Position numbers and translations under genes: made by a program
Shown: positions 1,850-24,778 of the stretch, in pieces
Position numbering within the stretch: position 1 is the stretch's first letter
Layout: every line of letters starts with the position of its first letter
Assembly (NCBI GenBank): GCA_000310025.1
Contig: FN649739.1
Span: 2,639,020 to 2,672,442 of the forward strand
Direction of reading: 5' to 3'
Length of the DNA: 33,423 nt
DNA from: Ectocarpus siliculosus
Lineage: Eukaryota > Sar > Phaeophyceae > Ectocarpales > Ectocarpaceae
The notes under the pieces: generated by a model
Databases searched by the model: none
What the model was told of the DNA's origin: nothing
Seen by the model: only the letters and a program-made list of their open reading frames with translations

Positions 1850-2560
1850 TCGTGTCCAGAGCCTCTACACGGTGGTTTGGGCTCGAGAACAACAACAACA
1901 GACAGAGCGGATGTGTGGCAAGAATCATTTTTTTCTCTCCCGCGTTCTCGTGCCCCGCCTCCGACGGATTTTGTCGGATCTCTCGCCCTCTCTTCCCTCC
2001 AAATGTACAGGATGTTCTACCGTTGGCCGTAAAAGCTCGATGGATTGTAACGACAGACAGACGTCAACATCACGCTTGCTTCTCGTGCACAAATGGGCGT
2101 CTCTGACGGTTGGGTGCTCTGAGATAGGTCCACCCGCTTGCCGGTCACTAGAGTTCTCCGTGTCTACGCGCCCATCCATGTTAACGCACCCGCGTGTTCT
2201 CCGTGCTTGCCATACCGCAGTTGCGGTTGGTTTAGGAGTTCATCGTGCGTTGCGAACACTCGAGCGCTTCTGGACTGTCCTGGGTCGCTCTGTTCGTTGG
2301 TGGCATATATCAAGCTCGCAAGACTTTGCGTCAGCCCGCTCGGTGGCCTCTCATCGATGTCCTTTTGCCTTAGGGCCCTGACATTATGGTGGGGGTAGAT
2401 TTTGTTGGGCTTTGCCGGTGACTGCCAAGGGAAATTCCTACATGATGGTGTTCACGGACCATTTTAGCCGGCGGGCGGATATGTTTGCTGCCACTGCTTG
2501 CCGAGTTCACGGCAACATGCGTTACGTAAAGATGGATGGCGCGCGCCCTCACAATAAGAG
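1850..2560 (+). pseudogene. Ty3/gypsy integrase remnant
   Basis: This is a decayed integrase, related to the one in the minus-strand element. WAREQQ near 1880 matches WAREQQ in that element. A stretch reading VLRACHTAV followed by LERFWTVLGRSVRWW (about 2195-2310) corresponds to the N-terminal zinc-binding region, with the histidines and cysteines partly lost. The catalytic core starts at about 2392 as VGVDFVG, keeping the first catalytic Asp (codon 2398-2400). After a frameshift it continues as NSYMMVFTDHFSRRADMF to about 2505. Frames change at least twice and stops interrupt it, so it cannot make a working enzyme. It points rightward, convergent with the element at 5.7-17.1 kb. Family assignment is firm; the limits are approximate. 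Confidence 0.75.
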
Positions 2561-3147
2561 CTTGGGAGATAACGACATGCATGCTCAATGAATTCAATAA
2601 TGTAAGAACTTTTGGCCATATCAAGAACAGAACAATAATTTAATCAAGAACAACCTTCATTGTGGTGTACAATGCGCGTACAGATTAGTCTAAAGAACGG
2701 ACCCCGAAAACGCGGCGGCTGCACGCAAAGAACGCAGGAAGAAGGTGGGGGGCGACCCCAACAGTTTATAGATCTGGGGCGGGGAGTAGGGGGGGGGTCA
2801 TGAAATAAACCTGGTACCTGCGGAGGGCGCGGCCGGGTAGGTGCCCACAGGCGCGGCGTTTCCCTCTCGTAACGTGTGCAAGTTAACCTTGTGGGCATTG
2901 TTACTGCTTTATTCTTGAGGAGCATGGCCAACCTTCCTTGTTGAAGGGAAGGGAAGGACCGACATTTCGAGGCGATCAACAACATGCCATTACGGGCAAC
3001 TGCTCGAACACTGGAAGACCACCGAGTTCACGTGGGGAGGGGTGAATATCGAGGTAGGTGCTGGGGCGAGGGGGATAAGAGCAGGGAGGGCATGGAGGAC
3101 GGCGGTCCCAGAGATGAAGACGATGACGATAAGCTGCATGGTTGGAT

Positions 3148-3203
3148 GTCGTTGTCGTTGTCGTTGTTGTTGACCTTGTCCTTGTCCTTGTCGTTTTCTT
3201 TGC
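3148..3203. repeat. GTCGTT/GTCCTT hexamer repeat
   Basis: Short units of GTCGTT, GTT and GTCCTT in tandem. They give poly-Val on one strand and poly-Asn/Asp or poly-Thr on the other. This low complexity inflates several overlapping open frames. Confidence 0.8.
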
Positions 3204-4051
3204 TTCCGCGGGTAATTGGCAGAGGTTCTTGTTGATGAAAGTCAGTTTTTCCTTCGTCAGTTCTTGCTGTGATTTGCAATGCGCTTTCTTTGCAGGTACG
3301 GTCCACGGCCAGAACGACTTCCTGAGTCTCCTGGATGAAAACAGCAGCATGGCCCCGGGGGATGAGCTTATACGGCTTTCCCATTCAATCAAGCATCTGT
3401 GCCCGCTGCTCTCGACTGTTCCTTTCTGCTGCTTAGGGTGGTACTCCTTAGGGGAGACATGGGCTGGTTTGGTCGGCTGATCCCTCGGCAATCTCAGTAG
3501 TGTGCCCGCCAACCTTACGATCTCACCGTGTGCATTCGAACTGGACCAAAGTACGCACAGCATGATGAACCGGCCGTTACAATAACAACGGAGATCCGAA
3601 TACCGTCGCAGGATCGTGTGGGTTTTGATTGAGCAGGGGGCAGTTTAGAGCACCGGGGGGGGTGTCCTACCATCGCAGAAGAAGACGAAGGGTTTGGCCT
3701 TCACCATGTAGCTGCGGCGGGGTGCGGGGAGGACACGAACGAACGCCCAACGTAACGCTAACCCTGTGGTTGCGTGTTGCTCATGATGGGTTTTGTTTTT
3801 GCTTGGCGAGGCCTGCCACGGTCTGTACTTGTCTACTGGAAGTGAGTGGGAGAGCTGATTTCGTCATTACAATGTAGGTGGATGCCTGCTCAAAGTGAGA
3901 CCTTCGAATATTACATAGAACACGGAGCATTGAACCCTCCCAAATAAGCGTTTAAGGGTTAAGGGCGGGCGCCACCCGTTATGATGACATGAATGACCAC
4001 CAGTCACCACAGGATCAACCGATTGATTCCACGGTACGTTTTTTCCCACCC

Positions 4052-4232: not shown

Positions 4233-5409
4233 GTATGTAGTGGTATTTGACCCCTTCCTTCAGAATCAATCACCTTTGTGCTGTGTGTCTCTCTTGTCCG
4301 CAGCAGAAGCAGGTTGTTGTTGCTTTTTCCGTTGTTCTCTTTCTCTTGATTAACCCTTTTCAAGCCAATTCACAATATCCCACGCACACACGATCAGGGA
4401 TCGTCTGTACGCTCACACTGAACAGAAGAGCACATGTCTCGGCATAAAGCCCTGATCTAGCATGACGTCACGTCCTAGCATCCGACGGCGCCAATAACCA
4501 TGATCAACCACGATCACATGTCTACCTCCAAATGCCATAACACTAGCCCACCCTGAGTGGACGTAGATGCAGAAACAGAAGCAAACCTCGGAGGGACTCT
4601 AGTCAACCAAGAGGATTGCGGTATGGATCGAAAATGCGACAACTCACAACCCTCACCCGCACCTCTCCGTTAACCAAACAAAAAAAAAACGGAACCAAGA
4701 AACAAGAAAACAAAGGAGACCGGGGCGGCACACTCGCGGGATAAAATCGGAAAAAGGCACATGGGTGCGAAAAAAAACAAACCATCCGAACCGATTAGAC
4801 CATAACACGAAGTAAGGAAATCGTGAAGGGAAAATCATAAACAATCTCGCACGAATGAACCGATCGGATACGCAATCAAGTAAGCCAAAACCTTACGGGA
4901 AGGTGGGCTATGCGATAGAGAATAAGAAACGAAAACCGAACCTGCAAGGGCTAAAACGACATGGAAAACCGTTAAGGGTCGAAAAGCAGGGAAAGAGGGG
5001 GTTTCCGGGGAAAGTAAACAACGGCCAAAGAAAAGGACAGGAACCAAACGCCAAAAACCCGCTTTCGCATGCCACGATAAAACGAGCTTGCGATCGGGGG
5101 GGCGCGTGAATAAACGATCCTAGTCGTACGTCATGGCCAATTGCAGGAATAAAATGCTAAAGAAAGTAGCAAGATGTGGAACACGTTGTTGGCCGTGGCA
5201 TGCAAAAGAAGCACTGGCGGGACGTTGGATCATAAAATATGCAAAGAAAACCATAGGGAGGGAAGTTAAACGATGCACAAAGCTGGGTGTCACCGCAACT
5301 AATGACGAACCTAGGTCGCATTGAAAAATAGGGAAAGGGAAGCGAAAACTTTCGACAACTGACCGAGAAGTGACAAACGGGGGCGAGAACGTAAGCAACA
5401 CAAAAGCAA

Positions 5410-5703: not shown

Positions 5704-6120
5704 TTAGCCAGGGGGAATAATATCCGTACCACGCGATTCGTCTACATTGCGCAAGATACCTCGCATGAAGGGACTATTTCGGTTCAGCTGAAGGTACCAA
5801 AGCTGTCGTGCAGCGCGAAGGGGAGAGGGTGATCTTGACAGGTCCAGGGTCATCCAGGAAGCGAACGAAGAAGGCGTTTGTAGTTGGAGCATGTGCGGAG
5901 ATTTTCCCTAGCCACCATAGAGCGTCTTGAGCCTTGTACCAGAAGTGTGCGCCAACAGGCAGCACGGTGTTGCGAAAACGGCGGGCCCAAACATCGCGGG
6001 GAACATATTCGTACCCAGGCGACGAGGACCGCTCGCCTTTGGTGCGAGACAGTTCACGTTCCGCTGCGCCGATGCGCATGCGACGATACAGACGGTTAGT
6101 CTGCCGGTGTTGGTCGGATG
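5704..6120 (-). pseudogene. Pol C-terminus: Tudor-like module
   Basis: The last part of the polyprotein. The minus frame ending at 5774 reads VGAHFWYKAQDALWWLGKI and then FFVRFLDDPGPVK, an aromatic-rich, SH3-like pattern typical of Tudor or other Royal-family barrels. A frameshift just after this moves the frame to one that reads LRNVDESRGTDIIPPG and ends in TAA at 5704-5706, which looks like the natural end of Pol. The module follows the chromodomain directly. Its likely role is binding modified histone tails or guiding integration, inferred from the fold-like pattern only; a structure-based search would test the Tudor call. Confidence 0.55.
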
Positions 6121-6300
6121 TACCAGCCCAATACAGAAGAATCTCTCTTTGGGAGTGTTGGAGGTCCATTTCTCGTTCCCACGAGGGGCGCATAACACCT
6201 TTTCAGTGGGTCTAGTACATGACTGCGATGACGCCGCCACGTCCTCGAACCGACTGGTGTCCGGTGATTTTCTCAACCTCGAGCCTGCGGACAGGCGCCG
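6121..6300 (-). pseudogene. Chromodomain of the retrotransposon integrase
   Basis: The minus strand reads RRLEVEKITGHQSV, then GVIAVMY, then KGVMRPSWEREMDLQH and ILLYW. This is the chromodomain pattern (V-E-K-I-L-x-H, Y-x-V-K-W-K-G, S-W-E-x-E-x-D-L, I-x-x-Y). In chromoviruses such a domain at the integrase C-terminus binds methylated histone H3 and steers insertion into heterochromatin. Here two stops in the same frame interrupt it at the Y-x-x-x-W-K-G strand: TAG at 6212-6214 and TGA at 6203-6205. The latter sits where Trp (TGG) is expected, consistent with a single G-to-A change. The domain is therefore identifiable but not translated past that point. Confidence 0.75.
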
Positions 6301-8007
6301 AAACATCGTCCGCGGTAACATGGTACGGCGGAGACTTCGTCGTGTAGTTGTTGAAAACATACTGCGTGAGGCCTGCAGGCAAGAACCGGGGCATGTCGTC
6401 ACTATCGTGTGGGTTCGCACACGATTTGCAACGAGCGACAGAAACTCGGCGCTTGGCATCCAGTCCGGGCATATCGGAGGGAAGATCCAAGTACAGGAGC
6501 TTGTCAGCCACCGGGCTGCCATAGGGAGCCTTGTTGCAAGGACCATCTGCGAGGATTTTAAAAGGACCTGTCCAATTCAAGGACAGCTTCTTCTTGAGTA
6601 CCTGGGAGTCAGCGTCTACGCGGGCCTTGGAAGTGAGTTTGGCACCTTGGCAGATGGTAGCCAAATGGTTGTAGACCCACACCCAACCACCGGTAGCGTA
6701 AACGGGTAGTTTGTGTAAGGCATCAGACAGTTTCGAGTTCCGTCATTCCATACGGGAAACTGTGAGTGCGTGTTGTTCACGCACTAGCTCGTAGGAGCGC
6801 CGTTGCCGATCGGCGGCAAGGTTGCAATACTCGAGCTGATCGCGGGCAAGCGACTGGTGACCACGAGCGTAAATGTTGTCAAAAACGGTCAGTGGAAACC
6901 TGGGAAGGTGCGCCATATGCACCTCATTGGGCGCCATTCCTGTGGCAGCGCTAACGGAGTTGTTGTATGCGAATTCAACATGAGGGAGATGAACGTCCCA
7001 ATCATCTTGTCGTTCATTCACAACCATAGCCAGCATCTGGGCCATGGTGTGGTTCACGCGCTCAACTCCTCCGTTGCCGCTAGGATGGTACGCGCTCGTC
7101 GTAATTTTTCGGACTCGTAGCAGTTTCAGGTGGCAACCGAAAGTTTGGAGCAGACCTGCAATCCGTTGTCAGAAAGAATGCTGAGGGGGCATCCCCAAAC
7201 ACGCATGTATGTATTGACAAGGACGTCGGCTGTACCTTCAGCTGTGAACTCGGCGTCAGTCACTGCGTACATATTGGCTCTCCGACTGAAACGGTCAGTG
7301 AATAGCTAAATATACGAGAAACCTCGCGGAGTTGTGGGAAGCGGACCAAAAAAGTTGACGCCAATCGCGACTCCTGGTGCCGAAGGTAGAGGGATAGTGA
7401 GAATCGGCCAGCGAATAGTCTGCCGCGCAGTTTTGCGGGCCTGACATTTCAAACATCGCCGAATCCACCAACGAGTACTAATACTCATCCCAATCCAACA
7501 GTAAAACCTCTCAAGCAAGCTAAGCGTGCGAGCGGTACCAAGGTGGCAGAGGGCGTTGGCATGACAAGCTTGCATGACCCAAGGTCGCATTAACATGGGC
7601 ACGTACATACGAGTAGGTTCGTCATTCAAGAGGCGTGTAGCTCCTCCTCCGGGGCGGTCAGAAAAGACCGGGGGCTTGGTATTCTTTCGTACCAAGAGGC
7701 AAAAGCCATCGTCAGTGACGAGGCGTCCTTTCTCTGCAAGCTCTCTAATATCCTCCAACGATGGTCTATGCCTGGAGTGATATGACACTCCGGCAAAGAA
7801 ATCGACAGGTAGACTCTGAGGGCGTTTGAGGAGAATGTAGCGGATGGTGGCTTCACACACCGGCTCTTTCTGCTGTTCCCGCGCCCAATCGGCGCGCGTG
7901 TAGCGTTCGACGGACTCACGGAATTCTAACTCTGCAGGGTTGAGGACCATGGAATCCACCGCGGGCGTTGCCGTGCCAGCTGTAGCAGCCGGTTGTGACA
8001 AACCCAA
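6301..8007 (-). pseudogene. Ty3/gypsy integrase
   Basis: The N-terminal zinc-binding part shows HANALCH (about 7540-7570) and CLKC (about 7445-7456), the HHCC set. The catalytic core follows. IGVNFFGPLP carries Asn (codon 7354-7356) where the first catalytic Asp is expected; the second Asp is in SDNGLQ (7169-7171) and the Glu is in GGVERVNH (7061-7063), about 35 residues later. A TAG at 7306-7308 and a frameshift near 7120 break the core, and a TGA at 6743-6745 breaks the linker to the C-terminal part (6212-6682). Sequence between 6850 and 7057 is well kept (WDVHLPHVEFAYNNSV). Integrase joins element cDNA to host DNA; this copy should be inactive on three separate grounds. Confidence 0.9.
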
Positions 8008-8890: not shown

Positions 8891-9480
8891 GGGACGTCAA
8901 ACTACTGTTACCGTTGATGTCGGCGTCAGGAGGCCCAATCGGCAGACGAGATAGCATGTCAGCATTGCCGTTGGAGGCACCTCGTCGCTATTCCCACGTG
9001 TAGCTGTATGCTTCAAGGAGCTCAAATCAGCGTTGGACGCGTGGGTTGTGCTCGCTGATTTTTGACAAACTTTCCAGCGCCTTGTTGTCTGAATAGATGC
9101 GGAAGTGTGTGCCACGAAGGTATTCGCGGAGACGCTTCGTCGCCCATACAACGGCTCCTGCTTCGAGATCGAGAGCGGTCCAGTTGCGTTCAACGTCGAG
9201 CGTGGCTCTGCTGATGAAAACGATCGGCCGTACCGAGCCGTCTTTCTGCTCTTGCTCCAGCGCGGCGCCGAGACCCTCGGAGCTGGCGTCACAGCAAAGA
9301 CGTAAAGGGCGTGTACCGTCCGCGATAGCGTCCCAAGCAGGAACACTAAAATGGGCGGTTTCGCGAGCTCAGCAAGTATGCTGCAAACAGTTGTTTCCAT
9401 GTCGCTCGTGAAAGCGAAGGGAACACCTTTTTTGAGCAAGTGCGTAATGGACTTCACACGCTTGGCCATGTCTCTGAGGA
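8890..9480 (-). pseudogene. RNase H domain of the retrotransposon
   Basis: The first frame, from 9469, reads AKRVKSITHLLKKGVPFAFT, the thumb/connection region that precedes RNase H in Ty3/gypsy elements. Near 9340 the frame shifts, and a second minus frame continues with LRLCCDASSEGLGAALEQE (first catalytic Asp), then ALDLEAGAVVWA (Glu) and RIYSDNKALE (second Asp). It ends near 8960 with NADMLSRLPIGPP. RNase H degrades the RNA strand of the RNA-DNA hybrid during reverse transcription. Three of the usual acidic residues are present, so the domain is well preserved apart from the frameshift. Confidence 0.85.
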
Positions 9481-10300
9481 AACGTCAGTAGTAGCTCAGA
9501 CCACCCGTGAGTGACCTGAGTTGCTTGACGGTCATAGGCATGGGCATACCTGCCAGGGCGGCTACTATACGGGCGTTGGGGAAGACACCTTTCGAAGATA
9601 CGGTGTGCCCCAAGAAGTCAGCCTTGGTGGTACCGATGGTGGCTTTCGAGGGAGAAAGTTCGAGGTCGTACTTTCTCAGCTGTTCGAAGAGCATGCGCAT
9701 ATTACGGACATGCTGCAGCGGGCCTTCGTCAAAAACAAACGACGTCATCGACGTATGCCTCGACTCCATCGAGTCCTTTGAATACTTCGTTAATCACTTT
9801 TACAAAGTGGCCTGCGGATTGGCTAGCACCCATCGGCATGCGGAGCCATTCGAACAAACGAGTGGGGGTCGCAAATGCCGTAAGGGGGATAGTGTCCTTG
9901 TGGACAGTGATCTGGTGGAAGGAACCCGTAAAATCGAATAGCGAGAAAATCGAACCGCTGTTGAGTTTCGTTAGAATCTCGTCGACTCGGGGAATGGGAA
10001 GTTGACCAAAGCTGCTGATATGGTTCAACTTTCTGTAGTTAACTGTGATGCGTATTCCACCAGACTTCTTTGGTATAACCACGATGGGGCTGGAATAAGG
10101 AGAGGTCGAATGCTGAATTAGGCCAGCAGCTAGACTGGTCCAAAATGGCATCGACTAGCTTTGCAACCAACGGATTCATACGGTGCGATTTGGACGTCAC
10201 GGGGGGACAATCCGGAGGTACTTTGGTCTCAAACGGCATCAGGGAACAGGACCCCAAATCCGTCGAGGATGTGGAAAACACGTCTTGGGAGTCATGCAAA
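9480..10300 (-). pseudogene. Ty3/gypsy reverse transcriptase
   Basis: The minus strand reads SPIVVIPKKSGGIRITVNYR, LPIPRVDEIL, FSLFDFTGSFHQI, EWLRMPMGASQSA and AYVDDVV, which are the ordered fingers and palm motifs of a Ty3/gypsy reverse transcriptase. The active-site YVDD is at 9744-9755 and the first Asp is in LFDFTG. The frame entering from the protease side (ending 10039) shifts near 10120. A second shift just after YVDD (near 9733, in a T-rich run) moves the rest, with LELSPSKATIGTTKADFLGH, to another frame ending at 9485. The catalytic aspartates are kept, so damage is by indels only. Confidence 0.93.
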
Positions 10301-11092
10301 AGATCACCAAGGTCTGTGATGACCTCTGTTGACCAACCAGGACCGTGTAGATCAAACTTAACCAACTTCAGGTGAGGCGGCAAGCGATTCCACAATGACT
10401 CAAAGCTAACTCTCTGATCAGCGCTCAACCGCTCCATCACATGCTGTGGTGGCGGCGAGGGCGAAGTGTGGGCGGTGGCAGGGGCCGCAGGGGATGATTT
10501 CCCTGGGTCCGGCACAGGAGGATCAGTGGATCGTAGGTTCTGCACGAAGGGATCGTGGCAACGCACCTGTGGATCGACGGTCCTGTCCGCGTTATCCTCG
10601 GTAGAACCCAAAATAGGTCCAGGCACCGGACATGAAGTATCAGCTTCGTCGTTAGACTGTTGTTCTAAGTGCTCTACCGGGACGCGCATCAGCGGGGCGG
10701 CAGCAGTACCGAGCAAGTCTCCTGGCTCAAGTTCTGCGGCACCCGCGAGCGGCACAAACTGACGTCCGTCGGAGACAAAGATTTCTTCGTTCGACGAAAC
10801 ATCAGGCAACATGTCGACTAGGTATTGACCGGTCAGAGCCGGTGTACCGTTTGAACGCACCAAATTGACTTCAATCATTTGGTGGTCGTCTGACAATGAG
10901 GTACCCGTCGGCCCTGCATAACGGAGCTGGAATGGGTTCGCCGGGGCTGTGAAATCGGGCACATACGCGACCGCACCAGAGTCAGCCTGGTGGGCAAGCG
11001 TATATTCACCAAAAACGCGATTGTCCAGTGGCCTCGGAGGCAACATACGGTGCGTGCGAGTGTTAAATCGCATGAAACTATCGCGTCCCCAA
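10300..11092 (-). pseudogene. Protease-to-reverse transcriptase linker
   Basis: An open minus frame of nearly 400 codons (11229-10039) covers the end of the protease, a Pro/Ser/Asp-rich linker and the approach to reverse transcriptase. The first useful part is GRDSFMRF at about 11090, which should follow the protease ILLG motif; an extra G in a G run there shifts the frame. The segment at 10290-10420 (LKLVKFDLHGPGWSTEVI then DLLHDSQDVFS) resembles the conserved lead-in to gypsy reverse transcriptase, where the host-like PF-E-T-K motif follows (PFETKVPPDCPPV). Confidence 0.7.
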
Positions 11093-11704
11093 GAGGATGG
11101 GAAACTGCATGGTGTTTGCAGGGACGATGTGCGCCCAAACGGCAAGAGAAGCCGAAGGCGTATCACCGTGGAAAAATTGCACACTAAGACGGACTGTATC
11201 GGACGTCTGAAGAGACTCGGATTTACCAAAACCTCCCCAAGAACGTGCGTTGCCGTGCGAGATGCAAGCCTCTGAGATGGCTCCCATGGCTATGAGGGTA
11301 CCTACAGCGTTGCTGTTGATGAACGTGGCCGGTGATCCTGAATCGAGCAGAGCAGCGCAACCCGATTGTGATTTGGCTGGCCCAGCGTGGGTTTTGACTC
11401 GAGTCGTAAATGAAGCGTCGTCAACTGTAACAACACCACCTACAAGGCAAGGACCATGCTCAGCGAGCAACGGTACACGATCTTCCTCATTATACTCAGC
11501 GGACGTAACCGCGAGAACTTCAGCGCTGTGATCCCTTGGAACATGCGCTGATTTTATGCGGTAACCTGACGACGGGGCGGCCTCCTCGGCGGCAGCCGTC
11601 GAAATACGCTCTTGCGTTTCAGGGTTAACCTCATGTATTGTATTCCGGAGGTGAGCGTCGGACGAAACTTGTGGTGGAAGTGTCGGCGTCGGCGCGTGCT
11701 CTCG
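11078..11704 (-). pseudogene. Retropepsin-like aspartic protease
   Basis: In the same minus frame as the NADAR domain, CAALLDSGSPATFIN gives the D-S-G active site of a retroviral-type protease, with Asp at codon 11344-11342. About 80 codons later FPILLG forms the second half-motif (I-L-L-G-x-D). The protease releases mature Gag and Pol proteins and works as a dimer. A one-base insertion in a run of four G at about 11092 turns ILLGRD into ILLGTR followed by a stop, cutting the protease from the rest of Pol. The Ser/Thr/Glu-rich 60-120 residues before the active site join it to the NADAR domain. Confidence 0.85.
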
Positions 11705-12178
11705 GAGGAGGTTTCGAACAACCTGCAGGCTTTTGCCAAGCAGGGTGGAGCCCCGCCATAAAGAGGGTTGGATTGCAGCAGGATCATCCGCGCGATGTCC
11801 AATGCCCCATATGGCATCGAGTGGGCTAGCTTCGACGAGAATTTTGTCGCCGGTGCCCAAAAGATGTTGTCGCATAGCGGGATTTTGAGAAAATTTGAAG
11901 TAGGAGGCGACACGCACCACGTTTTCACGCTCGCCCTCCCAAACAGCTTCGTCAAACCCTTTAACTCGGCGTCCGTAACGCTTATGTTTAATCGGGTCAG
12001 AAACACGCATAGTCCGCCGCAACGTATCTTGGTCGCCAAAGAGACGAGCCTTGGTAGCCGCGAAGAATTGTTCTCCACAAGAGTATTCAACACCATCTAC
12101 AGTAGAGATGGAGAGCATCCGTTGCGAGAAAACCGACAGGGCTTGCCAGAACAACACCATGTCAGGTGTGCAGTACTC
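11705..12178 (-). CDS. NADAR (YbiA-like) domain inside retrotransposon Pol
   Basis: About 150 residues from the ATG at 12160 carry the NADAR fold signature. With that Met as residue 1, they show VDGVEYSCGEQFF (21-33) with Glu30, ATKARLFGD (35-43), DPIKHKRYGRRVKGFDE (55-71), W74 with R78, FKFSQN (88-93), TGDKILVEASPLDAIWGIG (103-121), W135-x-G, LLGKSL and VVRNLL (to 152). These line up in order with E. coli YbiA, which is about 160 residues, so the domain looks complete. NADAR enzymes cleave N-glycosidic bonds; members remove ADP-ribose from guanine or hydrolyse riboflavin intermediates. The frame runs without break into the protease, and upstream it is open to a TAG at 12263-12265. It lies between Gag and protease, where most Ty3/gypsy elements have nothing enzymatic. 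Function here is inference. Confidence 0.85.
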
Positions 12179-12262
12179 CTTGCTCGGATGAAATGCTGGT
12201 GGTGACCACCTGGCGTCGGTCGGAGGAGCAGGGTAGATACGAATACCAGCTAGCCGAGTCCT

Positions 12263-12684
12263 CTACTCTACCAACAGCGCAACCAGGTGGGGTGTACAGT
12301 CTGTAGTGCTTTCGCTAGAATCCATCACGTTGGAGACATGACGGCCCTCCCTTGACGAGGGTCGCGAGTTTTGGGCTGTTTGTTCAGCGAGGGGCGCAAT
12401 CGGAGCGTCCTCCGAATACGGTGTTGTCAGCACCTCCGTGGTCGTGGTTGGGGACCGCTCAGTTTTGGTTCTCCGCGAATCGCAAACCACGGGAATTCGA
12501 CGCATATTTCTTTCAACGCAATCGGTCTTACTCGCTTCACCGTGCGGCAAGTGACGTTTATCACCGTCTCGAGTTCCACCGGCTGTATCGCCGCAGGCTG
12601 TCGATGAACCGTACGCAGTGGACATGTCCAAATCATCGCTCGAGGTAGCTAGACTCGGCGACGCTTCATGTATTGTCGACAACG
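12263..12684 (-). pseudogene. Disordered linker ORF ahead of NADAR
   Basis: A Ser/Thr-rich open frame of about 139 codons, with no usual ATG start, that ends at TAG 12263-12265. The stop is in frame with the NADAR-protease ORF, which reopens immediately and reaches its first ATG 34 codons later. Most of it (12349-12684) is a duplicate of 16041-16381. The copy here keeps one frame through the whole repeat, while the other is shifted by a 5-bp insertion. It may be a Gag-Pol linker, with the stop being either decay or a read-through site; the many other stops in the element favour decay. Confidence 0.45.
12349..12684. repeat. Internal direct repeat, copy A
   Basis: 336 bp that match 16041-16381 in the same orientation with about a dozen mismatches and one 5-bp indel by hand alignment, roughly 96% identity. 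Weaker similarity continues to about 12745. The copies are about 3.7 kb apart, inside the retroelement. They are not LTRs: both have element coding sequence on each side and no TG...CA ends. Confidence 0.9.
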
Positions 12685-13309: not shown

Positions 13310-14681
13310 GTATCTAGCTGCTCCCTCTTTTGCCATCGGCGGGTCTGAGTGTATTGTTGCGGGGTTTGAGCGTTACCTGCGTATTGAACTCTATGAGCTG
13401 GTCTGTGGGAACGGCGCCGGTTTTGTCGGCCATTCGAGTTGCGTGAGCCGTGTGTTGTGGCAGTCGCAGGCTTAGTCCTCCAGGACTGCAAGCGCTCTTG
13501 CCACAGGTGAAACGTGTCATCACCATCAGTCAGTGCACCTAAATCTGGGTTCAGTACACAACTAGCATTGGTGAAAGGTTGTTCACAATGTTTGATAGAG
13601 TGACCAGACCCGTGACAGTTTAAACAGCGGCCAGCAATCGCGCTGAACGCTTGTGCTCGGTCAGCTCTAGTCCTGAGGAGTGGTGTCCAAAGGGGAGGCA
13701 GTTGACGTTTGAAACCATTGGAAATAACAGCATGCATTGTCGCCCAATGATCATCGGTGGCCTGCGGCCAAGCACCAAAGCTAACACAAAACACATCATG
13801 AATTGGCTCTGCCTTAACACGCATGACCGATTTGCTACGTGCCCCCTGAGAGCTCCAAGGCTGCTGCGATTGCGTCGTCGAACGTCCTTGAGAACGATTA
13901 CCGCCTTGCGAATGCAACGATAATCCACTAAGCGAGAGCGTAGCATATTGCTCGCCATTCTCCTTAACCTTAGAGGTCGTGACCTTAGAGGTCGTGAACT
14001 CATTCAGCACTCGCCACATCTCATCCAGACTACTGTACGGTTCTGCAGCGGTACGCTTTGCACCCGGAAAACAGTCAGACATCATCACAGAAGACTGGTC
14101 GTTGATCTTATTCCTTGTGATCCCGACATTCCAAGTCTCGTTAAGGCAAAAAAGACTGGAATAGTGCGTGATGTTGTTCACGGCAGTACGATACTGTCGC
14201 AAAATTCTCCAAACGTAGTTCCGTTGGGAACACCGAACGCATTCAGCGTTGTCAAGGCGTCTCCACGGTCTTCATGCTTGAAGTGGGACGCCATCAGACG
14301 AAGAAGGTGCTTGAAAGCTTCTCCTCCGTTCATACCGTCGTCCATACGCTGCTTCACCTGCACAAACATGCCATTGATAGAGCTAATGAGGTCACCAGTG
14401 GTTTGCTTGTTCGGGGATACGGCGTTAATGATGGCTTTCTTCAGCGGGTTTTCCCACCCGCGAACCCACTTATCGGATTTGTCAAAATCGATGAAAGGGT
14501 CAGCCTGTTGCAAGACATCTAAGGCTGCAGTCTTTATAGAGTCTAACAACTGCGGCCCTGCCTGTTTAAGGTTTTGCCGGCCAAGGGATCGATGGTTGTT
14601 ATACGAATATCCTAAACCTCGTCTTGATGTACTTCGCACTGTCTTCTCTGACTCGTGCAGCTTCTGCAAGCGCTTCAGCAT
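13291..14681 (-). pseudogene. Gag, capsid-like part and CCHC zinc knuckle
   Basis: Two minus frames make up this part. The first (14681-14178) is helical and charged (PFIDFDKSDKWVRGW, GGEAFKHLLRLMASHFKHED), as in a capsid-type Gag region. A frameshift near 14190 passes to the second (14202-13291), which carries the knuckle CLNCHGSGHSIKHC at 13585-13626, a C-x2-C-x4-H-x4-C nucleic-acid-binding motif of nucleocapsid. After it comes a Gln/Arg/Thr-rich tail that runs into the MITE at 13309. With the MITE removed, the same frame would stop at TAG 13066-13068, so the insertion sits at the natural end of gag. Confidence 0.8.
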
Positions 14682-15655
14682 TTTCTATTTCTACTTGGCG
14701 AGCACGAGCAGTCGTTGACGACAACGGTTGAGCGTTATGGTCTACAAATGCACTGTTACGTGACATCAATGAGTGATCGTTGGCTGAAACATCAACCAAC
14801 AATGGTACTTGCCTGTCATCACGTGGGGCTGTCAGGGGTTGGTCCAGACGCTCCTCCAGTTGGAGATCGGTGGGCTGTTGCTGTTGGTGTGCGTCAAATA
14901 GCATCTCAGGGGAATGATCCCCATAGTGTGGAGCATCCGAGCCGTCGCTGCTTCTGCGCCCGCGGCGGTGTCCGCGGCAGCGTGGGCTACAGCTCCTGCT
15001 ATGACTCCGACTACGACGACGGCCACGACTCGTGTCCACCTTGCCGGCGCTTTTTGTCGCCGAAGGCTTGCGATCCACAGCGGCCTCATCCTGGTGGCCG
15101 TTGGACCCAGAGCGCTTCTTGCCACGTTTGCCTCAATTCGATCTCTTGGAGCTGCTGGCGGCCACGGAAAAGCCGACGCGTCGCTTTCGCTAGCTGCGGA
15201 AGAGCGCGACCCTCGCGAACCACGTTGACGGTGACCGTTACTGTTGCCACGTCCACGGTTGCTTGACGAACCTCGACCACTCTACCACGACCGCGGCTGC
15301 CACGGCTGCGGGAGCTGCTGCTGTCGGTAGCTCGCTCCTTCTTCACCTTGCGGTGAGTGACGACACGGAAATCGCCCGTCTGCTTGGCGAATGCTGCAGA
15401 AGCACCAAACGTCGTCGGCAGAATCGAAGGAGGAAGGTACCAGTTGACCTCCGCCCGGCGGTAGCCACCGGTAAGGTTAGCGTAACCTCTTCTGAGCCCG
15501 TTCAGAAGACGCGTTACCGATTCTACCAACGGGGCGTCTACCGTGGGGGTATGAGTGACGTGATGCAGGGATTCACGGAGCGTGACCGTAGGTCTCTCCA
15601 GCTTTCCAACATCGTCGTCAACACTGTAGCCGCCTTGGTGACTGGTATCCTGCAT
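14599..15655 (-). pseudogene. Gag N-terminal SR/RG-rich region
   Basis: Overlapping minus frames (15655-15086 and 15078-14599) join by frameshift. They contain an arginine-rich block SRSRGSRGRGRVVEVRQ (about 15275-15325) and an SR-type block RGRRRSRSHSRSCSPRCRG (about 14960-15015). A charged, possibly helical stretch follows (ARARQVEIENAEALAEAARV) and continues into the capsid-like part through a shift near 14640. Basic SR/RG regions bind RNA, so RNA packaging is a reasonable guess. No ATG start is evident; the beginning of this Gag is uncertain. Confidence 0.5.
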
Positions 15656-16218
15656 GCTTCCGTGAAGGCCTGCTGGTGCACGTGCGCGAAGTTAGACACC
15701 GGAATGTCAAGGAACAATTCATCCCCCTTTCGGAGGCTGAGGTCCGGCGGTCCTTGCGCCATTTGGCTGTATGACGGTTGGGCCGGGGGCGGTACAACAT
15801 AACCACCTCTAACGATGGACAGTGGTGGGTTCAGCAACAGCCCTTGCTGCTGGTATGGCATACGGTACCCCGCAGGGCCGGCTTTCTCGGGCTCGGAACC
15901 AAGCTCATTCGAGCCGGTGAGCGCCATGTGCTGCGAATCAAATCCCGAAGGACCGGTGAGCGTGTGCTCCGCACCGAACCCCTGTGGGCCGGTGGGAGGG
16001 CCTTGCGTCGAACCAACTCCCGTGGGATCGGCGAGCAAGTCCCTTGACGAGGGTCGCGAGTTTTGCGCTGTTTGTTCAGCGAGGGGCGCAATCGGAGCGT
16101 CCTCCGAATACGGTGTTGTCAGCACCTCCGTGGTCGTGGTTGGGGACCGCTCAGTTTTGGTTCTCCGCGAATCGCAAACCACGGGAATTCGACGCGTATT
16201 TCTTTCAACGAAATGCAA
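15538..16218 (-). pseudogene. Gag-like Pro/Gly-rich ORF
   Basis: An open minus frame of 226 codons. It begins inside direct-repeat copy B, passes through degenerate repeats of the type TGPxGFxSxHxLTG (about 15880-16030), and ends with an apparently folded part (GDELFLDIPVSNFAHVHQQA, KAATVLTTMLESWRDL). It leads by frameshift into the SR/RG-rich region. The family is not recognised beyond its position in the gag region of the element. Confidence 0.45.
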
Positions 16219-16381
16219 TCGGTCTTACTCGCTTCACCGTTCGGCACGTGACGTTTATCACCGTCTCGAGTTCCATCGGCTTTGTCGCCGCAGGCTGTCG
16301 TTGAACCGTACGCAGTGGACATGTCCAAATCATCGCTCGAGGTAGCTAGAGTGGGCGACGCTTCACCTATTGTCGACAACG
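16041..16381. repeat. Internal direct repeat, copy B
   Basis: 341-bp partner of 12349-12684. It has an extra 5 bp (AAATG, about 16210) that shifts the minus-strand frame which is open in copy A. It adjoins the left arm of the gag inverted repeat. Confidence 0.9.
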
Positions 16382-16407: not shown

Positions 16408-16650
16408 GAGCGAGCGTCCATGCTCGACAACACCCACATCTTGCTTCGAAACTTCGAAGAGGCGAAGCGTGAAGCGGATGCTAAAGCGCGGGCGTTGGCG
16501 GAAGAGGAAGTCGAAGAACAAAGGAGAGAGGCTGACGCGGCCTTGAGCGGTGCCAACAAGGCAAGTGCTCACTTGATGGATGAGCAGATCAGACAGCTCA
16601 CCCAGCAGCGCGAGCAGCCACGCGCGCTACAGGCCGAGTGCGTTGGCAAA
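16408..16650 (+). repeat. Gag coiled-coil inverted repeat, left arm
   Basis: 243 bp that are the near-perfect reverse complement of 16782-17024 and read the same Gag coiled-coil peptide on the plus strand (ASMLDNTHILLRNFEEAKRE). Only a few differences are seen by eye. The 131-bp spacer holds the normal continuation of the minus-strand gag. Confidence 0.92.
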
Positions 16651-17147
16651 GCAACAACAAGAGCTTGCTTCAAGCCATGCTCTTGCGAGCCGGCGAGCGG
16701 GTGGGACGATGCCGGAGCGGCGCCGTCCATACCGCCAAATTGCCTGGCGACGTTGGCCTGAGCTGCAGCAGCTGCGGTGGCCTTGTCAACGCACTCGGCC
16801 TGTAGCGCGCGTGACTGCTCGCGCTGCTGGGTGAGCTGTCTGATCTGCTCATCCATCAAGTGAGCACTTGCCTTGTTGGCACCGCTCAAGGCCGCGTCAG
16901 CCTCTCTCTTTTGTTCTTCGACTTCCTCTTCCGCCAACGCCCGCGCTTTAGCATCCGCTTCACGCTTCGCCTCTTCGAAGTTTCGAAACAAGATGTGGGT
17001 GTTGTCGAGCATGGACGCTCGCTCATTAGCAGCTCCGTCAAACGCACGTCAGAACGCACCAGCGGAGCGGTCGCCTTGAGTGATTCTGCCCCTGGTCTCG
17101 CTGTCGCAAGCCCCTGAGAAACTATCAATACGTTCTCTCGGCTGCAT
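16651..17147 (-). pseudogene. Gag N-terminus with coiled coil
   Basis: From the ATG at 17147 the minus frame reads MQPRERIDSFSGACDSETRG and goes on to FDGAANERASMLDNTHI. A strongly charged, Ala-rich helix follows (EEAKREADAKARALAEEEVE, then DEQIRQLTQQREQ) that should form a coiled coil, as in self-associating Gag proteins. A stop codon precedes the ATG. A TGA at 17049-17051 interrupts it where the context suggests Trp. Past 16651 the frame enters the inverted copy and becomes antisense sequence. Confidence 0.5.
16782..17024 (-). repeat. Gag coiled-coil inverted repeat, right arm
   Basis: The arm in the element's own orientation. Its minus-strand reading joins an upstream Gag-like frame without a break at the arm's edge, and it runs on into the spacer as ANVARQFGGMDGA. 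This arm therefore looks like the original and the left arm like the inverted copy. Confidence 0.92.
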
Positions 17148-19728: not shown

Positions 19729-20189
19729 ATGGACTCCCTCAAGCGCGTCTGGAGCGACGTGACGTCTGGCTTGCTCTCTCGCCGTGAAGAACGGTCGCCG
19801 GAACGTTCCGACGAGCTTCTCCCCTCCGCCGAGTCTGCCCTCAGGCTTGCCAGGACTGCAAGAGGTGGGTCGGGCGGGGCGGCGGGGCGGGGGTGGTGGT
19901 TCCCGGGCCAACGCGCAAGGCGAAGGAGAAATCTCGCTAGGGCGGCGGAGCGCGCCGCGGCAAAAAGGACTGAGGCGGGCGGCGGCGGGGCAGCAGCAGC
20001 AGCAGCGAGCGCGCTCCCGAACGGGCTCGCGAACCAGGGCAACACGTGCTACCTTAACTCGTTGCTGCAGGCCTTGTACCACGCCCCGGGCCTGCGGGAG
20101 GCTGTTTTTGAGGCCTTGACTGGTGGGGGGGACAGCGAGACGGTGTTGGCGTTGGGGACGGTGTTCCGACAGCTGGAGCAGGGAGGGAG
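19729..20189 (+). CDS. USP exon 1 (Cys box)
   Basis: Starts at the first in-frame ATG; the frame is open upstream to about 19477 but without ATG. It holds an Arg/Ala-rich, probably disordered N-terminus and the catalytic Cys at 20047-20049. It ends in phase 2 before GTGCGA. Confidence 0.85.
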
Positions 20190-23100
20190 GTGCGAGAGCT
20201 GCTCTTGTTGTAGTTGTTGCTGCTGCTTTTTTTCAAATGGGGGTTGTTGCTGCTGTTGTTGTTGCTGCTGCACGTATAGGTTTGCGTCAGTGATGGCAGA
20301 CACTGGCGTCAAATATTGCCGCCGCTGCTGTCATTTCCTGCCTGTATGTACCTCGTAAGCTTGTAGGTTTGGCGCTTGAAGCGTTCTTCTGAAGGAGAGT
20401 CTTGTTCGTGTTGTCCTCAACGCCGCTCGAGTAGTCGCGGTATATGGTGCTGCTGTCTCTTGGGTACCGTAAACATGCGAGTGATCACACACACCCTAGA
20501 GTAGAATTTTTCAGAGCTCGGTTTCTGCACGGGTTGTGTACATAGTCCAACCGATACAACGTGCAAGTAAGGCTCGACGAGGTCATTTGCCAACATCATG
20601 ACCCTATTTCGGCATTGATTGACAGCCGTTTCGGTCTTGGAGCAATCTGTGAAAGCCGTTCAACCGGGGGTGTGCTATCACTCGCACTCTGTCTGGCTTC
20701 TCGAAGATAGAATACTACTTCAACGAAACAAGTCCATTCCGCAGCAGCAACTGGGCTTCCCCCTCCAACACGTTACCGTTTTCTTTTTGGGCAGCAGGCC
20801 TGCTTCCACGCTCCCGGTGACTCGCGCGATGGGGGTGGATCCAACGGTGCAGCAAGACGCGCAAGAATTCGGACGGTGAGAGGGAGAGTGAAATTTGATC
20901 GTTAAAAGTGAGGGTTTGGACGTTGGTGGCGAGAGTTCGAATGAGATTTGGAAACGGCAAGAGTGGAAACATTGTGCGGTAAGAGCGACAGTTGGGATGA
21001 GAAGTGGGACGGTGAAGGCAAGAGTTTTAGAGTGGGAGGGGCGGGAAACTCTACCTTGGTGGTCATCATCCACGGCTGTGTTTTTGTCAGTCCGGTGGTT
21101 GTGTTGTAGGAAAGGTAGGTGCAGCCCTCCTACAGTACTCCCTCTTGAGACGCGTGTTAGAATGTACCAAAGTTTATCACCCGTGCTGCGAAGCAATCGT
21201 TTGGTTTTCATGAAAACAACATCCTCAAAGAACGTGTTCTTCTCTTCCCTTCCCTTGGTGGTCGTTGTGCGTTCATCCAGTCTACACGTTGTATGATGAT
21301 ACTTTATTACCTAACGTTTTCACAATGTGCGTTTGTTTAGTACCTATACAATCCTACCCATACCCTCGAGCCAATCGGTAGTAGTGCTCCTTTGTTTACT
21401 AGCTGTAGCGTTCGAGCTCGTATCCTTTCTATTTGTCCTTGTGTTTTGTCTGCTGCTTGATCAGGTTTTTGTTCATGGCTCTTGAGGGCGAGAGCGATAT
21501 CCAAGGGTCATCACCAGACACGGCAGCAGGGGAGGCGGGGGGCGACAAAGAAGTGGGGGGGCTTTCGGCCGCCATCAAGGATCTTTTCGCGGGACGATTG
21601 ATGAGCTACGTCGAGGTGAGCATTGTGTTGAGTCCTGCTCATCTATTTACAACTGCTCTGTCGAGGTTTGGTGATGGACGATGCGTTGCCGGGCAGCTGA
21701 CGAATATTTCGGTTTCTTGTTGGTTGGTGATACTCAACGTAACGTGCTCTGTCTGTTGAGATAGGTTGTGGCCGTTTGATATGGCTGTCTGAAGCTGATA
21801 CACTCTGCCGAGAGAAGCTGACAACCTGCGTGCAAGAAAAGTGCATCGACAGGTTACCCTACCGTACCGATTTTGTTTTTTTCAGGGTAGAGGGATGACC
21901 ACGGTTCAGATTATCCAGACTTGTGTGCATAGCGCCAGTATCCGCAGGTAACGAAATGGCGACAAGTTTGAGTTCTCGCGACGCCAGCAGAACGCGCGTG
22001 TTCCTGCCAGTGGAAAGCCGAAGAAGGTTCGAGTGGTTTGTTTGTCCTGTTTTTTTGTTTTCCCTGCTGACCCTGGCGGCCCGCCTACAACACATACACT
22101 GCTGCTGGTAAAACATATGCAGTGTGTGGATGTGGCGTTCACGAAGGAAAAGGAGGAGGCGTTTTACGACCTGCCCATGGACATCAAAGGAAGCGGGACG
22201 CTCCAGAAATCGCTCGACAGGTGTGCGAAATATTGATTGAGATTGGCGTTTGGCGGTGAAGGTTGTTGCCCTTCGGCATGTGCTTAGGTGCGGGTGCTGT
22301 ATGTGGTGATGCGGCGGTTAATTGTCTGCTCAACAGCACGAACAAACTGTGTCCGCTACTTGGTTCGAGCTTGCTGAAATGTTCGTTGTATATTGAGCTC
22401 CTCTACGCAGGTATGCACACCCGAATCCATATTCATCTTTCGTTTGCAACAAGAATGATGCTCATTCCGTACGTACGTGTCGCCGCGGAAGTTCCCTCTT
22501 GACGTACGCGAGAGCGGAGTATTTCGTCGCAATTGGTTGATCATATTGAGGACAGCAGTCATGACACTATTTGTTTGGTAGTCCTAGAATACCGATATTT
22601 TTTACTTGTCTACAGTATGCTGTCACGTGAGCTGTTTGTTTGGTTCAGTGCAGCCGCATTCATTCAACGACCACAAGTTGTCCAATAATATGGTGGCGTT
22701 TTGGTGGCCTGTGTTTCGACCTTCCTTCACGTGTGTTGTGTTGCTTCTGCACTCGGCCAGGCGGCCAGGCGTTATCGCACTTTTCTATTTTGGTTTGCCG
22801 AAGAACGCGTTTGTCCGTGTTTACTGTTAACAGTTTCTGCAGTGAATTTGCATGTTTTTTTTTTTTGTGTGTTTTTGGTTTTAAAGGAACACGTTTGTTG
22901 CCTGTGAGCACGAAAACAATCTCTTTCCAACTCCCAACAGACTAACGGCGTCTGCTGATGATATAGTTGCCCTTCTTGCGATGCAAAGGTTTTTTCGAAA
23001 TGATCCATTGTACTTCGAAGTACCTCACGTCCCATTGGTCATACCGTTGGTCGCGTGCACGAAATGATTTCGATAATTTTGCAGGTTCATCGAGGCGGAA

Positions 23101-24778
23101 CTTTTGTCCGGAGACAACCGCCTTAGAGCTGGCGAGCATGGCTTGCAGGACGCGAGGAAAGGGATCCGTTTCCTACAACTCCCGCCGGTATTGCAGGTGA
23201 ACACACGCTTTTTGTCAACGTTTTTTGGATTCTCCGACTTCGTGATAAAATATTTCTTTGCTATTTGTCCACCCTGTATTTGTTAAGAATGTTTTGGCCG
23301 ACGCCTCGATAATGGTTACACTTTGATTCAGCGGCCCCCCGTTTTACCTTCGAAGAGCTTGGAGGGGCATCCACGCACGACGTCCAGGCAATAATCACCA
23401 CGAAGTACTCTCCGTCAACCACTTCAGGGCCGTTTTGATTTCTTGAGGTTTAGGTTGCTTTCGCTGTTTTGGTGAACGTGTGTGTGCGTTTTTTTTTCGT
23501 TGCGTTTTTTGTTGTTGTTGCAGTTTCACCTGAAACGGTTCGAGTACGACCCGTACCAAGGCGACCTGGTCAAGATACACGACCGATTCGAGTTCCCGAC
23601 GGAGCTTGACATGTCGCCATGGGTGACACCACCGCCGCTGTCACCGAAGGATGGCAGCAATAGCCATAGCGATAGCCACACCGATGCCGAAGACAAGGCG
23701 GACAAGTACAAGCTGTCGGCCGTGGTGATGCACGTGGGAGGCCCCGCAGCCGGCCACTACTACGCGTACGTGCGCTACAGGGAGCCCCCATCCCCGCACC
23801 AACCGTCGGAAGATAATGCAGGTGGGAGCGGCTCCGGTGTACCGGAAGCAGCAGCAACAGCGGGGGTCGTTGCTGACAAGCGGGGGGCACCGCCATCGAC
23901 GACATGGGTTAAGCTTGACGACCATCGCGTGACCAAGGTGTTTGAGGGGGAGGTGTTGCGAGATGCTTTGGGGGGAGGGGGGGGGGTGTACAGGGGGCCC
24001 GGGGCTGAGCTCCAAGGATTTTTCGGTCAGGTAAGGCGTGGCAAAGCATGTAGCACAGGAGCATTGGCGCGTAGTAGTAGGCGGCCAGTTCGCGTTAGGT
24101 GCAAGTGATATGCCGTGCCTGGCAGGGTGGAACGGAACGAGGTCCGCCTTCTGGTGAATCGCGTGTCGCCTGTGGCTAGCTCTGGTTTGTACGTATTTGG
24201 CTTTGCAGCGATCACGTGTTTTTTTGCAGTAAATTAACGTGGTAGGCCAGAAACGTTGCAACTGCCCCTCCAAACTCTTGCCCTGCTTTCGAGATGAAAT
24301 GCCGCACCCACGTGTCACTCGTCGCCCCACAACTCCCTTCAAGAGCAACCCATGGCCTCACGAAAATAAAACCCGTGGACTCACGAATAGAGAACCCGTG
24401 GAACACGAATAGAAAACCCGTGGAACACGAACCGGATGCTCGATACTTCACAGCATTTCAAAACAGCAATCGAAGATTTTCAGCATGCCGCCGTTCCTAA
24501 CCGTTGCGGTAGCTAGACCTCGTTCGGCTCGCCGTCCTGGCACCGTCCACGACCACCGCAACGCCATGAACATTAACCACAACAGCATGTCAACAACCAT
24601 CATGAGCAGCGAGGACGCAAATTTGAAACAGTAACAATGCCTCGTGTGACAGGTGGCAGGATCTGGGGGGGGAGGAACAGCGTCGGCCTACATGCTACAG
24701 TACGTCAGGGAAGAGAGGGTTGGCCGCGAAGCGACCGAGATGGCTTCCGCATTGGAGGGAAGAATACATGAAGACCAG
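19729..24778 (+). CDS. Ubiquitin-specific protease, USP7/Ubp15-like (C19), multi-exon
   Basis: A cysteine protease that removes ubiquitin from proteins. Exons: 19729-20189, 20798-20875, 21465-21615, 22123-22220, 23085-23196, 23524-24030, 24653-about 24778. The first six introns are GT-AG and all phases agree. Counting from the ATG at 19729, the Cys box is GLANQGNTCYLNSLLQALY with Cys107. Then come VQQDAQEF, AFYDLPMDIKGSGTLQKSL, FIEAELLSGDNRL, AGEHGLQDARKGIRFLQLPP, FHLKRFEYD, RFEFPTELDM, the His box AGHYYAYVR (His378), WVKLDD (Asp432) and SAYMLQYVRE. The order and the GDN-AGEHGLQ block match USP7, but no MATH domain precedes it and zinc-binding Cys pairs are absent. About 40 low-complexity residues lie between His and Asp. 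The C-terminal end is unresolved; USP7 continues into ubiquitin-like domains, which I do not see. Confidence 0.92.
20200..20272. repeat. TTG/CTG-rich tract in USP intron 1
   Basis: Imperfect TTG and CTG triplets just after the donor of intron 1. The Cys-rich reading frame through it is not coding. Confidence 0.75.
20798..20875 (+). CDS. USP exon 2 (QQD box)
   Basis: 78 bp encoding MGVDPTVQQDAQEF. The acceptor is GCAGCAG, a NAGNAG tandem: using 20795 instead adds one codon in frame. It ends before GTGAGA. Confidence 0.85.
21465..21615 (+). CDS. USP exon 3
   Basis: 151 bp, from acceptor TTGATCAG to donor GTGAGC. It continues QEFGRFLFMALEGE and ends LFAGRLMSYVE, the USP7-type LFRGKMVSYI block. 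Confidence 0.88.
22123..22220 (+). CDS. USP exon 4
   Basis: 98 bp, acceptor CATATGCAG, donor GTGTGC. It encodes CVDVAFTKEKEEAFYDLPMD and KGSGTLQKSL. Confidence 0.88.
23085..23196 (+). CDS. USP exon 5
   Basis: 112 bp, acceptor ATTTTGCAG, donor GTGAAC. It encodes FIEAELLSGDNRL and AGEHGLQDARKGIRFLQLPP, very close to the USP7 palm/fingers region. Confidence 0.9.
23524..24030 (+). CDS. USP exon 6 (His box)
   Basis: 507 bp, acceptor TTGTTGCAG, donor GTAAGG. It carries FHLKRFEYD, the catalytic His (23755-23757) and Asp (23917-23919), plus Ser/Pro/Gly-rich inserts before and after the His box. Confidence 0.92.
24363..24432. repeat. 22-bp minisatellite in USP intron 6
   Basis: Three units of about 22 bp with the core ACCCGTGGAACACGAATAG, slightly varied. 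Confidence 0.8.
24653..24778 (+). CDS. USP exon 7 (end of catalytic domain)
   Basis: Acceptor GTGTGACAG, phase 0. It encodes SAYMLQYVREERV, the last strand of the USP fold, then a charged helix. The 3' end is uncertain: a GC-type donor (CAG then GCGAGT) at 24779 or a GT donor at 24783 are possible, otherwise the frame runs to a stop at 24848. An open stretch LREVVEEHCPNETYIF after an acceptor at 24850 looks coding but does not fit the phase of either donor. Confidence 0.7.

What the first reader, a model, noticed from the sequence alone, without database searches (positions are those of the whole stretch)
11705..12178. A complete NADAR domain built into a Ty3/gypsy polyprotein, next to the protease
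The sequence shows an ordered, near-full-length NADAR signature (GEQFF, ATKARLFGD, DP-x3-K-x2-GRRV, FKFSQN, LVEASPLDAIWGIG, W-x-G, LLGKSL) in the same uninterrupted frame as the DSG protease. It lies downstream of a CCHC Gag and upstream of RT. Established knowledge: NADAR enzymes are N-glycosidases; some remove ADP-ribose from guanine, and one serves as the antitoxin half of DarT-type DNA ADP-ribosylation systems. Inference: the element may carry it to erase ADP-ribose from its own RNA or cDNA, countering a host nucleic-acid ADP-ribosylation defence, or to cleave ADP-ribosyl/NAD-related metabolites in the particle. I cannot exclude that similar fusions have been reported.
Basis: partly seen in the sequence, partly recalled or inferred. 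Interest (0 to 1): 0.88.

Follow-up and report, generated by a model that had tools for sequence, protein, structure and literature searches.

The report
NADAR enzyme inside algal Gypsy retrotransposons
A family of jumping genes in what is probably a brown-algal genome carries, next to its protease, a well-preserved enzyme domain of a type known to strip ADP-ribose off guanine in DNA and RNA; such a fusion was reported in 2025, but why the element keeps it is still untested.

The parts
11702..12136 (-). NADAR domain (YbiA type), near full length
11078..12262 (-). Open frame (394 aa) holding NADAR, linker and DSG protease
   Evidence: Stop-to-stop ORF; 106 matches in own genome
11087..11503 (-). 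Aspartic protease region (LLDSGSP)
   Evidence: 95.7% identical to the same part of copy L031 (the piece was cut by me around the motif); no Pfam protease hit
9599..10076 (-). Reverse transcriptase, split over two frames
   Evidence: tblastn of L031 RT, itself RVT_1 E 4.2e-24
9006..9314 (-). RNase H
   Evidence: tblastn of L031 RT_RNaseH, 93% identity
7082..7602 (-). Integrase: H2C2 zinc domain (7429-7602) and core (7082-7380)
   Evidence: PF17921 E 3.4e-12; tblastn
5719..6406 (-). Pol C-terminus with chromodomain-like part
   Evidence: tblastn 92% to L243 over 5798-6406; L243 hits Chromo at E 0.0037, below the cut-off
13342..15691 (-). Gag, broken, with CCHC knuckle
   Evidence: 92.8% to L031 gag over 13343-15610; ORFs
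12263..12265 (-). Stop codon of this copy, just upstream of the NADAR frame
   Evidence: absent from L031
13091..13313 (.). Stretch with 63-bp inverted repeats standing where the gag/pol junction is in L031
16040..16409 (-). Rearranged second copy of a piece of pol linker
4236..4542 (-). 3' LTR of this copy; the 5' LTR was not found
   Evidence: 92% to the 309-bp LTR of the L243/L244 copy

Best explanation
A lineage of Ty3/Gypsy elements took up a bacterial-type NADAR gene, probably once, and keeps it as a working enzyme at the N-terminus of Pol. Gag ends at an in-frame UGA followed by C; a minority of ribosomes read through and make Gag-NADAR-PR-RT-RH-IN, so NADAR enters the particle with the polymerase. 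There it cleaves the N-glycosidic link of ADP-ribose on guanine in the element's RNA or single-stranded cDNA, clearing lesions placed by host (or invader) ADP-ribosyltransferases that would block reverse transcription. Shown: domain, order, active-site residues, fold, constraint, the UGA-C. Inferred: readthrough, packaging, activity, substrate and purpose.
Against: No activity, expression or packaging data. No DarT in the host (intron-blind). D86 is not kept, and R93 is C in 28 of 46 public relatives. Recent copies of group A show weak constraint (pooled NADAR ratio 0.627), close pairs scatter from 0.07 to 0.89, and in C against C2 NADAR (0.185-0.198) is no lower than the linker (0.155-0.186). 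9 of 63 copies have lost a key residue. No significant RNA structure after the UGA in three copies (z -1.28, 0.71, -0.67).
Confidence: 0.45

Rival explanations
1. NADAR acts on small molecules in the particle or cell: NAD- or ADP-ribose-derived signals or riboflavin-pathway intermediates, not on nucleic acid.
For: The domain scores above cut-off for TIGR02464, named for riboflavin-intermediate N-glycosidase. PMC9503650 argues that phage NADARs mainly target low-molecular-weight ADP-ribose derivatives (passages).
Against: It is fused into the polyprotein with RT, like the NADARs of RNA-virus polyproteins, which that paper assigns mainly to macromolecular ADP-ribose. A soluble target would not need packaging with Pol (inference).
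Confidence: 0.17
2. NADAR works on the host side: it removes ADP-ribose marks at the integration site or on host DNA or RNA to ease integration or silence a damage signal.
For: Four PARP catalytic-domain fragments and one macro-domain fragment match in the genome; Pol carries a chromodomain-like reader near the integrase.
Against: The NADARs tested in PMC11543638 act on guanine, not thymine; PARP marks are mostly on protein (recalled). NADAR sits near the protease, not the integrase.
Confidence: 0.13
3. The domain has become a binder or structural part (RNA or ADP-ribose reader, spacer) whose catalysis no longer matters.
For: D86 and R93 vary.
Against: E125 is kept in 72 of 74 copies, E43 in 59 of 64, K50 in 68 of 73 covering each; a spacer would be expected to drift like the linker.
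Confidence: 0.12
4. NADAR protects the element or cell against ART toxins of outside bacteria or viruses, not against a host defence.
For: C. crocatus YbiA is the antitoxin of the ART YarT (PMC11125620); element NADARs share a 99/91 supported clade with myxobacterial and planctomycete NADARs.
Against: Why an LTR element would gain from this is unclear; the C. crocatus protein itself was not placed in the tree.
Confidence: 0.08
5. Chance capture or host exon trapped by one insertion.
For: The window copy is broken.
Against: 106 and 99 matches with two queries, several subfamilies, constraint.
Confidence: 0.01

Closest known systems
NADAR-bearing Gypsy lineage of Ectocarpus sp. 7, e.g. Gypsy-12_Ec32 (Dinatale et al. 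2025, PMC12477816)
   Same: [quoted passage not shown] Gypsy-12_Ec32 also has a C-terminal chromodomain; all families of that lineage have NADAR (section 5 part 1 read).
   Different: The main text holds no 'stop codon', 'readthrough' or 'frameshift', and the parts read say nothing on active-site residues or selection; its supplements were not read.
Tx1 LINE ORF1 NADARs of Crassostrea gigas (same paper)
   Same: Retrotransposon carrying a YbiA-type NADAR.
   Different: Non-LTR element, ORF1 position, divergent; not examined here.
NADAR domains in RNA-virus replicase polyproteins (PMC9503650; BFVD matches)
   Same: NADAR embedded in a polyprotein with the polymerase.
   Different: Viruses with an RNA-dependent RNA polymerase; the named polyprotein rows are 20-24% identical to the model.
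DarT1-NADAR toxin-antitoxin and YarT-YbiA (PMC11543638, PMC11125620)
   Same: Same fold and catalytic core; guanine-ADP-ribose hydrolysis.
   Different: Bacterial antitoxins beside an ART gene; the element has E at 125 where DarT1-linked NADARs have D, and no ART partner was seen.
Gammaretroviral gag-stop-pol readthrough (recalled, no call)
   Same: One in-frame stop between gag and pol.
   Different: UAG with a pseudoknot there (recalled); UGA-C here, no significant structure in three copies.

Membership tests
NADAR superfamily (PF08719) | Profile match over curated cut-off | tested here: met
   136.8 bits against 35.1
NADAR superfamily (PF08719) | NADAR fold | tested here: met
   [not shown]
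YbiA subfamily | Glutamate at position E125 (aspartate in BC4488 type, histidine in phage type) | tested here: met
   E in the window and in 72 of 74 own-genome copies aligned
Guanine-ADP-ribose hydrolase | E43 and K50 equivalents kept | tested here: met
   E43 in 59 of 64 and K50 in 68 of 73 copies covering them; group D copies do not cover E43
Guanine-ADP-ribose hydrolase | Activity on ADP-ribosyl-guanine | not testable with these tools
   Needs a bench assay
DarT1-NADAR toxin-antitoxin | Adjacent or host DarT | tested here: inconclusive
   No DarT match in own genome; intron-blind, control rings in 1 of 14 genomes
DarT1-NADAR toxin-antitoxin | Aspartate in place of E125 | tested here: not met
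   Glutamate
Ty3/Gypsy LTR retrotransposon | Order PR-RT-RNase H-integrase in Pol | tested here: met
   Pfam on L031, L032, L033; PR by motif only
Ty3/Gypsy LTR retrotransposon | LTR pair | tested here: met
   305 bp at 99.7% and 309 bp at 99.0% in two of three copies looked at, none found in the third; in the window only one LTR
Ectocarpus NADAR Gypsy lineage (Dinatale et al.) | NADAR at N-terminus of Pol | tested here: met
   Starts at Pol residue 301, 384 or 444, before RT, in three copies
Ectocarpus NADAR Gypsy lineage (Dinatale et al.) | C-terminal chromodomain | tested here: inconclusive
   Chromo E 0.0037 and 0.0046, below cut-off, in two of three pieces; the third piece began too late to hold all of it
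Ectocarpus NADAR Gypsy lineage (Dinatale et al.) | RT phylogeny with those families | not tested
   Their sequences are not held; the own-genome RT search did not complete

The most novel reading that the evidence does not exclude
The element carries its own nucleic-acid eraser into the particle to undo host guanine ADP-ribosylation of retroelement RNA or cDNA. That would imply an undescribed ADP-ribosylation defence against retroelements in brown algae, with the element as its counter-defence.
Probability: 0.25. Interest if true: 0.88.

Novelty: already known. Interest (0 to 1): 0.5.

Why it matters
In the texts I read NADARs are antitoxins, phage and virus proteins and enzymes active in vitro, with no eukaryotic process that needs guanine de-ADP-ribosylation pinned down. 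A retroelement family that keeps the active site over deep divergence, in a fixed place and behind a fixed stop codon, points to a steady substrate, perhaps on retroelement nucleic acid. It offers a concrete system in which to look for it: many near-identical copies in a genome probably related to Ectocarpus, a genus with a published reference genome and TE map.

Tried and rejected
Chance or single capture: rejected. Gag belonging to another, nested element: suspected from the repeats at 12348-12684 and 16040-16381, rejected because window gag matches L031 gag in the same order. Relatives in viral contigs: for the element query 5 stretches matched a pattern and none encodes a relative; a bacterial NADAR query gave 127 relatives, best 80 kept, not examined for protease. 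Host NADAR gene as source: with a 105-aa piece of 8BAU the best matches (40-41%) are element copies (150 of 181 candidates scored; the highest identity listed, 43%, is in two copies also matched); I did not check each weaker row. Structure after the UGA: nothing significant in three copies. A guessed DNA pattern around the UGA matched only 3 of 244 loci and was dropped. NADAR-less sister elements by RT: search unanswered seven times, so when NADAR was gained on the RT tree is open. Nine of 69 public proteins with the element protease lack a NADAR match; in the seven seen the protease begins 8-111 residues from the start, so they are too short in front to show loss. Monophyly of element NADARs: one side of a branch at 77/95 (7 of the 26 rows have no protease in the piece held and were counted as element by similarity), and 90/91 in the first tree of 93 rows; neither starred. 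Rfam: no match in the window. ART genes beside bacterial NADARs: none noticed in the ORF lists of two loci; no family search made. Literature: 'NADAR'+'retrotransposon' (7 papers), 'DUF1768'+'retrotransposon' (67, none), 'NADAR'+'transposable element' (68, 7 papers), 'NADAR'+'brown alga' (80, 10 of 80 listed): of those listed only PMC12477816 is on this subject, the rest judged by title and abstract start. Recoding: searches (6 of 7 listed; 2 papers): none on this element by title. (5 of 2,948 listed) was too loose to use.

Full report
What is there. The minus-strand ORF 11078-12262 holds a NADAR domain (Pfam E 1.1e-39; TIGR02464 E 8.5e-37) and, in the same frame, an LLDSGSP protease motif. 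Around it lie Gag, RT, RNase H, integrase and a C-terminal chromodomain-like part, the order of a Ty3/Gypsy element read on the minus strand from about 18 kb to the 3' LTR at 4236-4542. The window copy is dead: a stop just before the NADAR frame, pol in several frames, the gag/pol junction missing, and rearranged pieces at 16-17.5 kb.

A family, not an accident. The NADAR-PR ORF gives 106 matches in its own genome, about 104 places since two copies are split in two (105 of 355 candidates scored, so a lower bound); many lie in open frames of 2000-2580 aa. A query from another subfamily gave 99 (98 of 373 scored). I call the subfamilies A (window; copies 82-93% identical to it over most of the frame), A2, B, B2, C, C2 and D. 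In some searches A and C are 44-55% identical to the other main groups. Elsewhere, 60 of the 304 public proteins collected from three searches (each listing at most 120, of 345, 125 and 486 hits) have NADAR followed by the element protease; 46 of them have full-length NADAR, in 11 clusters at 80%. Two element-like proteins with an organism name, P0021 and P0276, are from Ectocarpus sp. CCAP 1310/34; P0021 (no protease match) sits beside copy L029 in the tree. So the host is probably an Ectocarpus relative; its name is not known to me.

Constraint. Nei-Gojobori counts: B against B2 gives NADAR 0.062 and 0.066 (third pair saturated), PR 0.071-0.085. C against C2 gives NADAR 0.185 and 0.198, PR 0.028 and 0.034, linker 0.155 and 0.186: there NADAR is no better than the linker. 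Between seven representatives NADAR is 52-79% identical, PR 46-91%, linker 14-57%. Among recent copies the pooled NADAR ratio is 0.627 in A, 0.175 in B, 0.168 in C and 0.321 in D; single close pairs scatter from 0.07 to 0.89 (the last with a damaged copy, L077). Copies dead since insertion would pull it up. Most pairs between main groups have saturated dS and gave no ratio.

A recoding stop. In L031, L032 and L033 (groups A, B, C) gag and pol are in one frame, parted by one TGA followed by C. Of 53 loci examined, 44 aligned over the junction (22 A, 22 C, among them the L031 and L033 copies again) and all 44 read TGA-C; in C the next two bases differ between halves of the set (CTT 11, CAT 11). 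The 9 that did not align are L011, L024-L029, L042 and L055. Read by frame, A2 copies L025 and L027 and B2 copy L029 have TGA CTC; L024 and L026 are too damaged to read. Of junction-spanning genome matches, 82 of 83 and 45 of 46 (C and D rows) contain a TGA; 64 and 37 have one TGA and no other stop. Those two searches do not give the position of the stop. Readthrough is the simplest reading: it would make NADAR-Pol a minor Gag fusion carried into the particle. No significant structure follows the stop in three copies. The main text of Dinatale et al. holds none of the words readthrough, read-through, stop codon or frameshift.

Origin. Scanning one genome per prokaryote species with an alignment of the nearest standalone NADARs gave Nannocystis and other Myxococcota first, then Planctomycetota and others (best 80 of 271 kept). 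A 77-row tree with 32 of these and 14 viral rows puts element NADARs with myxobacterial and planctomycete ones in a clade at 99/91, order inside unresolved; the 26 element rows stand on one side of a branch at 77/95. One uptake from a bacterium is the simplest reading, not proved. Dinatale et al. also inferred possible horizontal transfer from bacterial blast hits.

Function. Published: NADARs free ADP-ribose from guanine in DNA (PMC11543638) and RNA (PMC11833690, passages), not from phosphate ends; a myxobacterial YbiA is active and an antitoxin (PMC11125620, section 6). This favours guanine in the element's RNA or cDNA over RNA-end repair. Host side: no DarT, four PARP catalytic-domain fragments (this search rang in none of its 14 control genomes), one macro-domain fragment; all these searches ignore introns. 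The writer of the mark, if any, is unknown, and the counter-defence story stays inference.

Known or new. Dinatale et al. 2025 (PMC12477816; [quoted passage not shown] The finding is therefore already known in kind. The residue-level, selection and UGA-C results add to it and make it testable.

Noticed in passing
L031:6548-6550, L032:6834-6836, L033:2232-2234; own-genome junctions: In-frame UGA-C between gag and pol in the NADAR Gypsy subfamilies examined, a probable stop-readthrough signal.
   Followed up: yes
L241, L243, L240 (Pol C-termini): After the chromodomain-like part comes a conserved stretch (WYKARDG-WW-GKI ... VVRFLDDPG) that looks Tudor- or Agenet-like by eye; Pfam shows nothing for it.
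   Followed up: partly
window 2178-2504 (+): A second Gypsy integrase relic (36-61% to the A element) on the other strand.
   Followed up: no
window about 19960-24108 (+): Exons of a host ubiquitin-specific protease-like gene (GLANQGNTCYLNSLLQ ... HVGGPAAGHYYAYVR), by eye.
   Followed up: no
window 16408-17024: 248-bp arms of an inverted repeat, 98% complementary, near the 5' part of the element; the segment 17026-17531 is inverted against copy L244.
   Followed up: partly
L080:2268-2777 and 2992-3519: Nannocystis pusilla carries two different NADAR-like genes close together, one YbiA-like (by eye) and one near the element type.
   Followed up: no
G000:C3:3913169 and C489:435177: Copies reported in open frames of 10887 and 6365 aa, far beyond one Pol; possibly withheld N stretches.
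   Followed up: no
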